Shown in pieces: positions 24,061-30,926 of a DNA stretch of 40,266 bases. How positions within the stretch are numbered: position 1 is the first letter of the stretch; the number at the start of each line of letters is the position of its first letter. The position numbers and the translations under genes were made by a program. Where the stretch lies: assembly GCA_947629685.1 (NCBI GenBank), contig CANREP010000016.1:1-40266 (forward strand). The letters run 5' to 3'. Below the pieces are notes generated by a model. The model was not told the DNA's origin and made no database searches. It saw nothing but the letters and a program-made list of their open reading frames with translations. This DNA comes from an uncultured Phascolarctobacterium sp. (GTDB lineage: Bacteria > Bacillota > Negativicutes > Acidaminococcales > Acidaminococcaceae).

Positions 24061-25251
24061 TTATACAGTCACAAAAATTTCAAAAATGCGGTTGCCGACC
24101 TCCATACCGCTCTCAGTCAGCCTCAATATCTGCCGTTTTTCGTCATAATCTATAAATCCCGCTTCTCTCAGCGGCTCAAGCTCCGCACGGTATTTTTCCC
24201 ACACGTCCACACCATAGCGTTCACGCGCCTGCGCCAAATCTGCGCCTGCCGTTTTACGCAGATTCATAAACATAAATTCGCCCACAAGTTCAGCATCGCT
24301 TAGCAGCTCAATATCGTAAATATCCTCGCCTGCCGCGCTGCCGGCAATATACGCCGCTACATCCGCCGTCGCCGTCACACGCCTCGCGCCGTCAAAAGCG
24401 CAGGCTGCCGCACCGAAAGCCTCGTAGGGCAGATAACGCCAGTAAGCAAGATTATGCTGAGAATAAGCGCCGCTACGGGCATAGTTGGAAACCTCATAGC
24501 GTTCATAGCCGTTTTCCTGCAGAAAGCGCTGCACAAATTCATACATATCGGCCGCCGCGTCCTCATCCGGCAGCTGCACCTTTCCTGCTTGCACCAGCCT
24601 GGTCAGCGGCGTCCCCTCTTCCAAAATCAGTCCGTACACGGAAAGATGCTCAATACCCGTCGCTGTCAGCTGCTGCAAAGTATCCTCAAGGCTACGCAGA
24701 GTCTGCTGCGGCAAGCCGTAAATCACGTCCGCATTGATACGCTTAAAGCCTGCCGCCTGCGCCATGGCAACAGCGTCTAACGCCTCGCGCGCCGTATGGA
24801 TACGCCCGATTGCCGCCAGCTCGCTATCCTGCAGCGACTGCACGCCGAAGCTGACACGGTCAAAGCCAAGCTGACACAGCGCCTGCAGTTTATCCTTATC
24901 AGCCGTACCCGGATTTACCTCGATAGTCGCTTCGGCAGGCTGCTGCCACCAGCCATTATTTTTCATAGCGGCTACAATCTCGGCAATGTCCTCTGCCGGC
25001 AGCACTGAAGGCGTACCGCCGCCGAAATACACCGTCGCGGCCGGATTGACGGCCTTACCCATACGTCCCTTGCGCTCAATCTCACGGCATACGGCAGCGA
25101 CATACTCCTGCTGCATCTTTCTGTTCCGGCAGGCGTAGGAAGCAAAATCGCAGTACAGACATTTCTGCACGCAGAAAGGAATATGCACATAAACCGCCTG
25201 CACCTGCTGCCAAGAGCGCAGCCCGGTATTTTTTCCAGCTTCACACTTCAT
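24061..25251 (-). CDS. hemW: HemW-like radical SAM protein (putative haem chaperone)
   Basis: This belongs to the HemN-like radical SAM proteins now called HemW, which bind haem and are not coproporphyrinogen oxidases. The cluster motif is CVQKCLYCDF (CxxxCxxC), preceded by VYVHIPFC. FGGGTPS (SAM contact), EVNPGT and SFGVQS are conserved radical-SAM landmarks, and the C-terminal HemN_C domain follows. HemN proper has an extra N-terminal Cys, so HemW is favoured. The open frame runs back to 25611, but a good promoter lies inside that extension, and GGAG precedes ATG 25251 by 9 nt, giving 396 residues; ATG 25266 is an alternative. In many Firmicutes it sits directly between lepA and hrcA; here an accessory module separates it from lepA. 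Confidence 0.93.
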   Translation of the reverse strand: MKCEAGKNTGLRSWQQVQAVYVHIPFCVQKCLYCDFASYACRNRKMQQEYVAAVCREIERKGRMGKAVNPAATVYFGGGTPSVLPAEDIAEIVAAMKNNGWWQQPAEATIEVNPGTADKDKLQALCQLGFDRVSFGVQSLQDSELAAIGRIHTAREALDAVAMAQAAGFKRINADVIYGLPQQTLRSLEDTLQQLTATGIEHLSVYGLILEEGTPLTRLVQAGKVQLPDEDAAADMYEFVQRFLQENGYERYEVSNYARSGAYSQHNLAYWRYLPYEAFGAAACAFDGARRVTATADVAAYIAGSAAGEDIYDIELLSDAELVGEFMFMNLRKTAGADLAQARERYGVDVWEKYRAELEPLREAGFIDYDEKRQILRLTESGMEVGNRIFEIFVTV

Positions 25252-25284
25252 TTTCGTCCGCTCCATCTCTAAATTACTGACACC

Positions 25285-25576: not shown

Positions 25577-25598
25577 CCATGTATTAAAGATTTTTTAC

Positions 25599-28416
25599 TT
25601 AGAAGCTCCACTGCAAACCGGCATTGATCTGATACGTTTCGTCATTATCATTACCGAAGGATTTTTCAAAGTCCAGATATGGCTGCGCCTATATGTCTTT
25701 CGCCTTTGTCATCTTTATTATCCAGTTTGTCGTAGCCCAGCTGGTACATGGTGTTCATGCTTCTGAATTCATCTTTCATGCCTATACGGTCATGACGCAG
25801 TCTCACCCACATTCCTTCATCTCCGTCTATATATCTTGCTTCGCCAAGACGTTTGTTGAGTCTGTCCATATATACTGCGTTTTTATAGTTGACATGGCTC
25901 ATGTTGATGATGGTCTCACCGCTGTCTGTCAGGTCATCATCGTCGCCCGGGTCTATGGTACTGCTGCTTCTCACCAGGTAAACATTCTGACTGTTTTTAC
26001 CTTCCTCTATCTTGTCATAGGTATTTTCAACATAACTGCTTCCTGGCTTATCGTTACTTTCCGTAAAGCCACTGCCGCCATTGTAATCGCTTTCTTTACC
26101 TACATCCTGATACTTTTCTTCTGCTTCACTTTCTTTATCCATGTCTACATATTGTACGCCAAGTTCTACGTTTCTCAGTCCTCGTCCTTTGACAGCATAT
26201 GTATTTCCGAATGTTCCAGCACCATTATAGGCGCCGCCATATTCAAAGCTTCCTTCTGCATCTGCTATGGTAGCAAAACGTATTCTTTCTCCTGCTTGCA
26301 GATTCAGCAGATCTCTTTCGTTATTTACAACTAAACTCTGGCCGCGGGCAATCCAGGTAGCGCCGTTACTTAAGCTGATTTCTACATTACCGGCGCTTGT
26401 TACATCAAGAGCATTACCGTTATTATCAACAAATGCAGAATTATGGAACATAATATCTTCGTTACCTACATCTGCAAGCTCGTGATAATCGTCAACCTGT
26501 CCTTCTAATACAGAGTTTGCTCCGCTTAAATTCAAAGTAATCTGTCCACCGTTGCCGGCAAAGACATCGCCGTAAATCTGGGTTGTTTCACCGCCGATGC
26601 TGATAGTACCGCCGTTAATGCTATTGCTCCCCGAACCGGCAACAAGCGAACCGTAAACATAATACTTGCCGTCAACATCAGTCCAATCAATATTAGCACC
26701 CTGTACGCTGCGTAAAGCTATATTGTTGATTTTTTCTGAATCATCAGAAGCATCTCCAGTATATAAGCCTGAATAATCTCCATAATCAGTTTGGCTGTCC
26801 GGCAAATTTATATAAGCCTGATTAACTTTTAACTCACTTTGCTGCATATTAACAGCGGCAGCAAACTTATCGGTAGAATCCACATCATTTATATAGAGCT
26901 CATCAATCTGAACTTTCGCATCTTCATAATTTGTATTCTTATTAACACCCAAGCCTATCGCCACACCATTTTTAGACGTAACACCATCTATTCTCAATAC
27001 ATCTATATGAGAACCTTCTTCTGTACTATCAACACCTTTTGTTATCTGCAATCCATAAACATTTTTCTCTGTCGAACTTATATTTTTTATATCAACATAA
27101 CCAGCTAATAAATCCTGCTTATTAACATACAATCCATAAGTTTTTACTTTATCTGCAGTGATATTTTCAACTTTAATATTTTCTACGTTCTTCATTTTAG
27201 TATTCTCTAAAAGAATGCCGGCTAAATATCCATACGCTGTCGTAACTTTGGACTTAATATTTTTCGCTGTTAACGATAAAATATCTTTATCTGTTTGTGT
27301 ACTTGATATGTTGATACCTGTAATCTGATTAATGGTTTTACCGCTAAATAAAATATTTTCAACGTTGATACTGTCCACTGTAAATGAACCGCCATCAGTT
27401 AACTCTACGGCATCTGCATCAGAATACAAATAACTATTATTTATATCTGCAATAAGTTCCAAATCACTTACTGTAATATTATTTATGGAAGAAACTGTAT
27501 TATTAGCATTAAATCCACTCGCTATACCTTTGGCATCTTCAATAATAATATCTTTAGCTTCTATTTGTCCGCCATCAATATCAATTAAACTCTCTTTAAA
27601 TTGAACAGGAGCATTTGAATCTGTACTCTGTATCGTAATATTTCCATCAGCCTTTAAATTGCCAGTATCTATAGCAGATGTTGAAAAATCTACATCTGTA
27701 AACGTAATGTTACCAGTTTCAACAAAAACGCTTTTATCTCCAGAAATACCATATTTGACGTCACTGTTGCTGATTATAATATCGCCCGTATTAAAACTTA
27801 CTGTCTCTTTGCCTGCACTTGATTTTAATTCTATTATTCCAGCATTTGTTCCACCATTTACATTATCAATAGTAATATCACCAACACTCATACTGCTTCC
27901 AGTACCATCGTCATCAGCCATTCCTACAGAAATTAAAGAATTAATATTTGAAAAATCAACATTTTGAATTTTCAAACTGCCATTTATAGTAAGCTTACCA
28001 CCATTGGTTGTAGTACCATTTTGCCCAACTTGAATCAAAGATGTATATGTCCTTTTATAACTGCTACCCCCTAAAAGCTCTTTTGTCGGTGTTATGGTAG
28101 CCGCATCATTATCGCCAATACTAACGTTACCATGAATAGTGAGACTGGACATAGCGGCATTCTTCTGGCTATTTTCCGTTGATACGATAATCCCGCGATG
28201 TTCAACATCAGTTATACTCAATCCATTGTCTAAAGCATTAATAATATAATCCGATTCTTTATTACCAATAATATAGATAGCTCCTACTTCGTTTGTTGTT
28301 GGAGTGTAAGTATTCATTTTATCAAAATCTGCTTCAGTAATTTTTTCTGCTGCATATACACTGCCTTGCATAACACTTAATAATACCAATGCAGTAAGTA
28401 AAGTTTTTCTCTTCAT
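25599..28416 (-). pseudogene. Autotransporter adhesin with a deleted beta-barrel
   Basis: The open frame 28416-25666 encodes a signal peptide (MKRKTLLTALVLLSVMQGSVYA), a ~760-residue repetitive Asn/Asp/Ser/Ile-rich passenger of the beta-helix type and the beginning of an autotransporter barrel (EGMWVRLRHDRIGMKDEFRS, then YQLGYDKLD). It then ends abruptly after ERHIGAAISGL. In another frame immediately downstream (about 25686-25599) the last barrel strands appear: PYLDFEKSFGNDNDE and INAGLQWSF with the outer-membrane C-terminal Phe, then TAA. An out-of-frame deletion of most of the barrel (roughly 200-250 residues by family size) explains this. The passenger could be made but not displayed. 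GGGAGGAG precedes the ATG. The gene is clearly more AT-rich than its neighbours and follows an XRE regulator gene. Confidence 0.82.
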
Positions 28417-28450
28417 ATTGCTCTCCTCCCACGTGCTTTCATGTTAAATA

Positions 28451-28489
28451 AAACAAAAAGGCAAATATTCTCTGGATATTTGTCTTTTT
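28451..28489 (-). terminator. Hairpin terminator or attenuator between the XRE gene and the autotransporter
   Basis: A long imperfect stem (28455-28468 with 28476-28489, one A-C mismatch) begins within 6 nt of the xre stop and is followed by TTTTTGTTTTATT on the minus strand. No clear promoter is seen before the autotransporter, so read-through of this hairpin may set its expression. Confidence 0.65.
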
Positions 28490-28494
28490 TCTCC

Positions 28495-28818
28495 TTATTT
28501 ATCCTTATTTTTCCAGCTTACCAGCCTTAGCGCTTCTATCAGGTCTTCTAAGTCTATCTTGTTTTCAGTGGCTTTATCTTTGCCATTGTCATATCTTTCC
28601 TCATCGGCAAAGCTGTCGATGCTGCAATCCAGCGCCCTGCTTATCTTGACCGCCGTCCATAAACTGATACCCGTATTTCCCTTTTCTATATTGCTCATAT
28701 GGGTTTGCGATACTTCTATCGCTTTCGCCAGTTCTATCTGTGAAATCCCTTTCTGGATACGCAGCTTCCTTATCCGCTCACCTATTTTTTTGCAGTTAAT
28801 ATTAATTTCTTCCTGCAT
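28495..28818 (-). CDS. XRE-family helix-turn-helix regulator
   Basis: This is a small (107-residue) DNA-binding protein. The Cro/CI helix-turn-helix is clear: IGERIRKLRIQKGISQIELAKAIEVSQTHMSNIEKGNTGISL (about residues 12-52), followed by an acidic, charged C-terminal tail of unknown role. AAGGTGG lies 5 nt before ATG 28818; a GTG at 28827 lies inside that ribosome binding site. It is co-oriented with the autotransporter remnant, 78 nt upstream of it, and its promoter has a G7 tract in the spacer. Control of itself and of the surface protein is a reasonable inference; an XRE antitoxin role is possible, but no toxin gene is seen. Confidence 0.85.
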   Translation of the reverse strand: MQEEININCKKIGERIRKLRIQKGISQIELAKAIEVSQTHMSNIEKGNTGISLWTAVKISRALDCSIDSFADEERYDNGKDKATENKIDLEDLIEALRLVSWKNKDK

Positions 28819-28833
28819 AAAAACCACCTTATA

Positions 28834-28856
28834 AATATACTGTTTGACGATATATT
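28834..28856. promoter_or_regulatory. Inverted repeat, possible XRE operator
   Basis: AATATA and TATATT arms (28834-28839 and 28851-28856) flank an 11-bp centre. It lies between the predicted xre start (near 28859) and its ribosome binding site, a natural place for autorepression. Confidence 0.45.
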
Positions 28857-28865
28857 GTGTGAAAT

Positions 28866-28893
28866 ATTATAACACGTTTGCACCCCCCCGCAA
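28866..28893 (-). promoter_or_regulatory. Promoter of the XRE gene with a G7 spacer tract
   Basis: On the minus strand TTGCGG (28893-28888) and TATAAT (28871-28866) are 16 bp apart. A run of seven G residues (28889-28883) spans the end of the -35 box and the start of the spacer, so slippage would change the spacing. Confidence 0.55.
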
Positions 28894-28935
28894 GACATTT
28901 TGAGGTTGCAATACTTTCTTTATTCTGTCTTGCGG
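28888..28935. repeat. 10-bp inverted repeat next to the poly-C/poly-G tract
   Basis: CCGCAAGACA (28888-28897) and TGTCTTGCGG (28926-28935) are perfect arms around 28 nt. The left arm contains the predicted -35 box of xre. The rest of the ~300-nt gene-free stretch 28828-29126 holds only the elements listed separately here. Confidence 0.6.
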
Positions 28936-28980
28936 CTGGGACCATTTTTATTACGGCTTTTACCGAAAATCTTATACAAA

Positions 28981-29011
28981 AAAACACCGGACAAAACTTG
29001 TCCGATGTTTT
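28981..29011. terminator. Second terminator-like hairpin between lepA and the accessory module
   Basis: A 14-bp stem with one mismatch (28981-28994 with 28998-29011) is followed by seven T residues on the minus strand and four on the plus strand. It adds to the lepA terminator and insulates the module. Confidence 0.7.
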
Positions 29012-29093
29012 CAATAATCGTAATCCATATAATTTTATTAAATCTGCTTTATCAATTTATATATTTAAAATTTTAAACATAATATCCGGGCAT

Positions 29094-29125
29094 AAAAAAT
29101 ACCCTGCTATAAGGCAGGGTATTTT
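29094..29125 (-). terminator. Intrinsic terminator of lepA
   Basis: AAATACCCTGC/GCAGGGTATTT (29097-29107 with 29114-29124) forms an 11-bp stem with a 6-nt loop, followed by a run of T on the minus strand, directly after the lepA stop. Confidence 0.9.
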
Positions 29126-29126
29126 C

Positions 29127-30926
29127 TTAATCCATCTTCAAAATCGCCATGAAAGCTTCCTGCGGCAGTTCAACACTGCCTACCTGTTTCATGCGTTTTT
29201 TGCCTTCTTTTTGTTTTTCCAGCAACTTGCGCTTACGGCTGATGTCGCCGCCGTAGCATTTAGCCAATACGTCCTTGCGCATGGCACGCACATTTTCGCG
29301 GGCGATAATCTTGTTGCCGATAGCTGCCTGTACAGGGATTTCAAACATCTGACGGGGAATCAGCCCGCGCAGCTTTTCTACCAGCTGGCGGCCGCGGGAG
29401 GTTGCTTTTTCCCTATGCACGATAGCAGACAGAGCGTCGACAGGATCGCCGTTCAGCAAAATATCTACCTTTACCAGGTTGGAAGCGCGGTAGCCAGCCA
29501 GCTCATAGTCCAGCGAAGCGTAACCGCGGGTAACAGACTTCAATCTGTCAAAGTAATCATAAATAATCTCACTCAAGGGCAGCGCGTAGTGAATCATAAC
29601 CCTGTTTTCATCCAGATAGGTCATGTTCTCGTATTCACCGCGTTTTTCCTGACTCAGCTCCATAACCGCACCCACATAATCCTTGGGCACGATGATGGTA
29701 GCGTTCACATAAGGCTCTTCTACATGGTCGATAACCGTCGGGTCAGGGAAATTGGAAGGATTGTCCACCATTTCCACGTCGCCGTTGGTGCGGAACACTT
29801 CGTAAATAACGTTGGGCGCCGTAGTAATCAGACTCAGGTTGTACTCGCGTTCCAGCCTTTCCTTGATAACGTCCATGTGCAGCAAGCCCAGGAAGCCGCA
29901 GCGGAAGCCAAAGCCCAAGGCGATAGAAGTCTCCGGCTCAAACACCAGGGAAGCGTCGTTCAGCTGCAGTTTTTCCAGCGCGTCGCGCAGATTGTCGTAG
30001 TCAGAGTTTTCCACAGGGTACAGACCGCAGAATACCATAGGCGTAGCCTTACGGTAACCGGGCAGCGCCTGCTCGGCAGGTCTCAGCGCATCTGTTACGG
30101 TATCGCCGACGCGGGCGTCTTTCACGTTTTTAATTGCCGCGGCAAAGAAGCCTACCTGCCCGGGCTCCAGCGAATCTACGTTGACAATGCCAGGCTTAAA
30201 GTAGCCTACTTCCGTTACCTCAAACTCCGCGCCGGTAGCCATCATACGGATCTTCATGCCTTTTTTGATGCTGCCGTCGATAACGCGGACATACAGCACT
30301 ACGCCTTTATAAGCGTCAAACTTAGAGTCAAATACCAGCGCCTTCAGCGGCTTTTCAGCATCGCCGCTGGGAGCAGGCACCTTAGCTACGATAGCCTCCA
30401 GTACGTCCTCGATACCAAGTCCGGTTTTCGCGCTGCACAGCACGGCGTCAGACGCGTCGATGCCGATAACGTCTTCAATCTCGCGTTTCACGTGCTCAGG
30501 ATCGGCGCTGGGCAAATCAATTTTATTGACAACGGGGATGATTTCCAAATCGTTATCCAGCGCCAGATACACGTTAGCCAGCGTCTGCGCCTCGATGCCC
30601 TGGGTAGCGTCGATAACGAGCAGCGCGCCTTCGCAGGCCGCCAAAGCTCTTGATACCTCATAGGTAAAGTCCACATGACCAGGAGTGTCGATAAAGTTCA
30701 GCATATACTCCTGTCCGTCGCGCGCTTTATAAATGCTGCGCACTGCCTGAGCCTTGATGGTGATGCCGCGTTCTCTTTCCAGATCCATAGAGTCCAGGAT
30801 CTGCTCCTCCATCTCGCGTTTGGACAAAGTGCCAGTATATTCGATTAATCTGTCGGCCAGGGTAGACTTACCATGGTCGATATGGGCAATAATGGAAAAA
30901 TTACGAATTCTTTTTTGCTCCATCAT
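29127..30926 (-). CDS. lepA: LepA / elongation factor 4
   Basis: LepA is a ribosome-dependent GTPase linked to 30S biogenesis and back-translocation. AHIDHGKST (residues 14-22) is the P-loop, DTPGHVDF the G3 motif and NKIDLP the G4 motif. EF-Tu domain 2 and the EF-G-like domains III and V follow, with the LepA-specific C-terminal domain ending in GEGKKRMK-like basic sequence ([20 protein letters not shown]). At 599 residues it is full length. Two ATG codons are in tandem (30926 and 30923); AAGGAG spacing slightly favours the second. It is transcribed alone, between its own promoter and terminator. Confidence 0.97.

What the first reader, a model, noticed from the sequence alone, without database searches (positions are those of the whole stretch)
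25599..28416. Autotransporter whose passenger survives but whose beta-barrel has been excised
The frame is intact through a signal peptide, a long passenger and the first barrel strands, then jumps to the last ~27 residues (ending QWSF, stop) in another frame. The lost part is the middle of the barrel only. A recombination between short repeats (GGCGCAGC-type sequence is at the join) would explain it. The remnant may be a decayed gene or a silent store of passenger sequence for recombination with paralogues; the second idea is speculative.
Basis: partly seen in the sequence, partly recalled or inferred. Interest (0 to 1): 0.6.

Follow-up and report, generated by a model that had tools for sequence, protein, structure and literature searches.

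The report
Autotransporter gene broken by internal deletion
A gene for a bacterial surface protein has lost the middle of its membrane anchor through a short deletion that also shifts the reading frame, so it is most likely a recently broken gene and an ordinary case of surface-gene decay.

Summary
On the minus strand a 916-codon frame (28416-25666) runs through a signal peptide, a long passenger and the first ~45 residues of a PF03797-type barrel. It then shifts frame, and the last 26 residues of the same barrel (25679-25602, ending QWSF) follow in another frame. Relatives complete at this end carry 190-195 residues in between, so 572-587 nt are missing. The join is a 4-bp microhomology (CATA), not a GGCGCAGC repeat.

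Passenger and linker show no other damage, and the linker pair is conserved (dN/dS 0.10 against its nearest relative), so the break looks recent. The gene sits with a Cro/C1-type regulator in a 3.5-kb islet between lepA and hemW that the congener lacks (one AATAC there, two here).

No second copy of this barrel class was found in the own assembly: not in the searches, and not at either end of the 43 other contigs. The idea of a passenger store therefore has no partner here. Close relatives encode the barrel fused in the same gene, so a separate barrel partner is also unsupported. An assembly artefact is unlikely but cannot be excluded without reads. Verdict: an autotransporter pseudogene, low interest.

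The parts
25666..28416 (-). truncated autotransporter ORF, 916 codons (native residues 1-913, then 3 out-of-frame residues and stop)
28351..28416 (-). signal peptide (MKRKTLLTALVLLSVMQGSVYA), read by eye; no predictor was run
   Evidence: similar N-termini in relatives
26341..28350 (-). passenger; no full-length relative found, best partial matches 41-60% identity in three genomes of another genus
25678..26340 (-). conserved linker and start of the barrel (residues 693-913), 80% nt identical to L048
25678..25681 (-). deletion join: 4-bp microhomology CATA
25599..25679 (-). last 26 barrel codons (YLDFEKSF...QWSF) and stop, out of frame with the ORF; overlaps the join by 2 nt
28495..28818 (-). 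Cro/C1-type HTH regulator (PF01381), 107 aa, same strand, just upstream
25581..29123 (.). islet (regulator + autotransporter) between lepA and hemW, AATAC at both edges (29123-29119 and 25585-25581); absent from the congener G001
29127..30926 (-). flank: lepA (name recalled; 99% identical in G001)
24061..25266 (-). flank: hemW-like gene (name recalled; start codon not determined)

Best explanation
This is a pseudogene of a classical (type Va, PF03797-type) autotransporter. The regulator-autotransporter islet entered between lepA and hemW in this lineage, or was lost from the congener. The autotransporter later lost 572-587 nt of its barrel by an illegitimate deletion at a 4-bp microhomology, which also shifted the frame. 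Shown: the anatomy, the missing segment relative to intact members, the join, the empty site in the congener, and that no other copy of this barrel class was found in the assembly. Inferred: the deletion is real in the organism, it is recent, and the 916-aa product, having no barrel, cannot be displayed and is degraded or stays in the periplasm.
For: Frame and tail. Intact relatives with 190-195 residues at the gap. No PF03797 match in the window ORF at E<=1, while three relatives match at 1e-31 to 9e-39. Microhomology CATA with both arms seen in relatives. The segment was not found elsewhere in the genome. Recent: 913 native codons without a stop, the tail unbroken, linker dN/dS 0.10 over 221 codons against L048, and 4 changes on the window branch against 6 on the L048 branch where two outgroups agree. 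Islet: (empty site); lepA next to hemW without an islet in 20 of 29 non-own hemW loci examined, including G001. Decay in the same family: one G019 member is split by a frameshift at a T6 run.
Against: No second strain of the species and no reads were available, so the deletion rests on one assembly. dN/dS could be measured only for the linker and barrel start, not the passenger, and it averages two branches; 4 against 6 changes is a small count. The ancestral barrel of this very gene is unseen: the right arm comes from the congener at other loci and the left arm from L048. In the other 9 of 29 hemW loci lepA was not seen, so an islet there cannot be excluded.
Confidence: 0.86

Rival explanations
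1. Assembly artefact: the barrel is intact but repeated in the genome, and the assembler skipped it.
For: Autotransporter barrels do break assemblies in this genus. G001 contigs C10 and C12 begin with the same 141 bp of this barrel's end, and own contigs C21 and C29 end in the same 77 bp of another barrel class. L048 also ends inside its barrel.
Against: Those repeats ended contigs; no false join was seen there. Four bp is far below the 77-bp overlap seen here, and there is no run of N. Neither side of this barrel class was seen at either end of the 43 other own contigs, where a collapsed repeat should leave traces.
Confidence: 0.09
2. Silent passenger store: the truncated gene is kept as a donor that recombines with a paralogue carrying a complete barrel.
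For: Shared exact barrel stretches between loci in the congener (141 bp) and, for another class, in the own genome (77 bp) suggest barrels are exchanged or homogenised. L048 and the window share linker and signal-peptide DNA (80% and 78%), while DNA similarity in the passenger was not detected.
Against: No paralogue of the same barrel class was found in the own assembly, and no DNA of this passenger was found in the other loci fetched by then, except short matches of 70-74% over 99-186 nt in G019 and G028.
Confidence: 0.03
3. The truncated 916-aa product is functional as a periplasmic or released protein.
For: The frame is open for 916 codons with a signal peptide and an upstream regulator.
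Against: The out-of-frame tail is still almost unchanged, as expected after a young accident. None of the members read ends at this place.
Confidence: 0.02

Closest known systems
Classical (type Va) autotransporters with PF03797 barrel, such as EspP, Hbp and BrkA (solved barrels matched by the intact relative L039)
   Same: Signal peptide, long passenger, linker, barrel start and end; intact relatives match PF03797 and EspP
   Different: 190-195 barrel residues are missing and the C-terminal strand is out of frame; no PF03797 match
Decayed autotransporter genes, e.g. capC/capD of Campylobacter (PMC7168839; abstract and section list seen)
   Same: Lineage-specific inactivation of autotransporter genes of patchy distribution
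   Different: There premature stops and frameshifts are reported; here an internal frame-shifting deletion, seen in a single genome
Autotransporter adhesins of Veillonella parvula (PMC7549365; abstract and section list seen)
   Same: Many autotransporters in one diderm Firmicute genome (that the window is from this group is my guess)
   Different: Those were tested in adhesion; this one has no complete barrel

Membership tests
type Va autotransporter (PF03797) | N-terminal signal peptide | tested here: inconclusive
   Read by eye from the sequence; similar N-termini in relatives; no predictor run
type Va autotransporter (PF03797) | complete C-terminal 12-strand barrel | tested here: not met
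   No PF03797 match at E<=1; 190-195 residues missing against relatives. In L042 about 190 of the 234 residues in the PF03797 match (870-1103) correspond to the lost part (worked out by hand)
type Va autotransporter (PF03797) | last strand in frame, ending in an aromatic residue | tested here: not met
   QWSF is present but out of frame
type Va autotransporter (PF03797) | beta-helical passenger | not tested
   No structure was predicted; Pfam found no passenger family above cut-off
silent cassette with an expression-site paralogue | second copy with complete, homologous barrel in the same genome | tested here: not met
   the limit is a 44-contig draft
two-partner or split secretion | separate barrel gene next to the passenger gene | tested here: not met
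   Neighbours are lepA and hemW, syntenic with G001; the regulator is an HTH protein

The most novel reading that the evidence does not exclude
In this genus autotransporter barrels are homogenised between loci while passengers turn over; barrel-less genes such as this one are then not dead but donors from which a passenger can be moved onto a complete barrel.
Probability: 0.04. Interest if true: 0.55.

Novelty: new member of a known kind. Interest (0 to 1): 0.16.

Why it matters
It is a clean example of how surface-protein genes come and go: a small regulator-autotransporter islet found in one species and absent from its congener, already broken by a short deletion. It also warns that draft genomes of such bacteria lose or break repeated barrels, so counts of autotransporters from drafts are likely too low.

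Tried and rejected
Separate barrel partner: rejected (neighbours are lepA and hemW; barrels are fused in the relatives read). Segment moved elsewhere in the genome: rejected at the level of the assembly. Repeat-mediated deletion by GGCGCAGC: rejected. Phage origin of the gene: no match in 50,697 phage records and no relative among viral contigs. Literature on passenger exchange by gene conversion: 2 papers held all the terms (listing only); autotransporters in the supposed family: the only listed paper with all three terms is a pig E. coli review (listing only). Finding the same species by name: the only named relative is L048, filed under a Lachnospiraceae MAG. In that genome (G061, 3.0 Mb) only that contig matched, so I suspect a stray contig; this was not tested further. 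The organism was not identified. That it is a Negativicute is recall and inference.

Weak or irrelevant hits at the contig ends, told in full: besides C18, C21 and C29 (another barrel class), there were hits in C30 (8795-11461) and in the far part of C29 to other frames of 300 codons or more that were in my comparison set and that I take for non-autotransporter or antisense frames, and one 35-residue, 43% hit in C41 (3617-3817, E 3e-5). None of these was followed up.

Full report
WHAT IS THERE. The minus-strand ORF 28416-25666 codes 916 residues: MKRKTLLTALVLLSVMQGSVYA (signal-peptide-like), a long passenger, a linker and the start of a barrel (...NMSHVNYKNAVYMDRLNKRLGEARYIDGDEGMWVRLRHDRIG...GERHIGAAI), then SGL and a stop. 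In another frame, from 25679, the last 26 residues of such a barrel follow up to a stop at 25601-25599. The coordinates of the finding (25599-28416) are right.

WHAT IS MISSING. Relatives were found (a match in 13 of 61 genomes, the own included, most of them only in the barrel). I fetched and read members in G019, G034 and G028, plus L048 and later one in G068. Ten members complete at this end have 191-196 residues from DYM to the end of YAF, so 190-195 codons plus 2 nt are lost here. The intact members match PF03797 (L042 10-254 of 255; L039 10-254; L048 12-214 up to its contig end), and the barrel of L039 matches solved EspP, BrkA and Hbp barrels. The window ORF has no PF03797 match at E<=1.

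THE JOIN. The left arm in L048 is GGCGCGGCCATA|GAC. The right arm in the congener G001 is AGCTACGCATA|TCTGG. The window reads GGCGCAGCCATATCTGG. The two arms share CATA, in different frames, which explains the frameshift. No GGCGCAGC copy lies at the right arm in G001. Four bases of homology fit an illegitimate deletion.

AGE. There is no other stop in the 913 native codons, and the tail differs from relatives at few sites. Against L048 the linker and barrel start (221 codons) give dS 1.11, dN 0.114, ratio 0.10. Where two outgroups agree, 4 amino-acid changes fall on the window branch and 6 on that of L048. So no excess of change is seen after the loss, which suggests a recent event. The passenger could not be tested: it has only partial relatives in 3 of the 58 other genomes of the family (G068, G019, G028, 41-60% over 101-256 residues). 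Of these, G068 and G028 have intact genes with the same barrel, and the G019 gene is split in two frames at GGTTTTTTGATAC.

THE SETTING. On the same strand lie lepA (99% identical in G001), the regulator, the autotransporter and hemW. In G001 the neighbourhood is syntenic, but lepA and hemW are separated by a short spacer only. The alignment breaks at AATAC, present once in G001 and twice in the window (29123-29119, 25585-25581), so the islet is about 3.5 kb. Its G+C is 37% against 51% for the window. Of 30 hemW loci held, one is the window's own; in 20 of the other 29 lepA lies close by without room for an islet, and in 9 lepA was not seen in the stretch. This favours gain in the window's lineage over loss in G001.

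THE REGULATOR. The 107-aa HTH protein (PF01381) belongs to a family with 9 members each in the own genome and G001 at E<=1e-5. At least 8 of these 18 lie within 1 kb of an autotransporter or its end: own C16, C21, C6 and C1:35402; G001 C11:126722, C9, C12 and C10. Three of the 18 (own C4, G001 C13 and C1) were not inspected, and own C19 lies at a contig start. The nearest one (78% identical, G001 C11) stands just upstream of a different autotransporter of 1185 aa. So the pair looks like a recurring unit, with the regulator before or after the autotransporter; regulation itself is inference.

IS THERE A PARTNER? In the own genome there are six PF03797 barrels and none of this class was seen. 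The window protein finds only itself. The barrel start finds itself and a 35% match. The missing part of the barrel from L048 finds a 45% match in another full autotransporter and a weak 27% one. The tail DNA finds itself plus a 19-nt match (E 0.09), while the same search finds both G001 tails at 82-85%. Both ends of the 43 other own contigs (71 loci) gave no hit that I could assign to this class; one weak 35-residue hit in C41 was not followed up. So nothing seen in this assembly could receive this passenger by homologous exchange at a barrel of its own class.

IS IT AN ARTEFACT? Barrels do break assemblies here. G001 contigs C10 and C12 share their first 141 bp, within the end of this very barrel class, and own contigs C21 and C29 share their last 77 bp within another class. 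These numbers equal k-mer sizes that common short-read assemblers use (recalled). But such repeats end contigs, and a join over 4 bp without N is not how they usually fail (recalled). I hold an artefact unlikely (0.09), not excluded.

VERDICT. The repeat at the join and the silent store are not supported. Loss of autotransporter genes by lineage is known (PMC7168839, abstract seen). Low interest.

Noticed in passing
L115:1-141 and L117:1-141 (G001 C12 and C10); L106:1-77 and L155:1-77 (own C21 and C29): Contigs begin or end with exactly shared stretches of autotransporter barrel (141 bp in the congener, 77 bp in the own genome): barrels are near-identical between loci there and drop out of the assemblies.
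   Followed up: partly
window 28495-28818; L105:4687-5043; L118:7052-7390; L119:2175-2516; L121:2064-2432; L111:6425-6799: A small Cro/C1-type HTH gene recurs next to autotransporter genes across the family; at least 8 of 18 such HTH genes in the own genome and the congener lie within 1 kb of one.
   Followed up: partly
L039:3848-7185 (G019 C1): A relative of this gene is split into frames of 759 and 369 codons by a frameshift at a run of six T: decay, phase variation or a sequencing error.
   Followed up: partly
L048:1-3087: The nearest relative of the linker sits on a short contig filed under a Lachnospiraceae MAG; probably a stray contig. Its passenger is unlike the window's at DNA level, though linker and signal peptide DNA match.
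   Followed up: partly
L114:1103-4498 (G001 C2): An exported 1131-aa protein with a signal peptide and a lysine/alanine-rich end lies near another HTH gene of the same kind; no barrel seen at its end.
   Followed up: no
L040:6154-6855, L041:8508-9326, L042:2221-2961: In another genus of the family, members of this autotransporter class have a divergent gene next to them whose C-terminus looks like sigma-70 region 4 (by eye).
   Followed up: no
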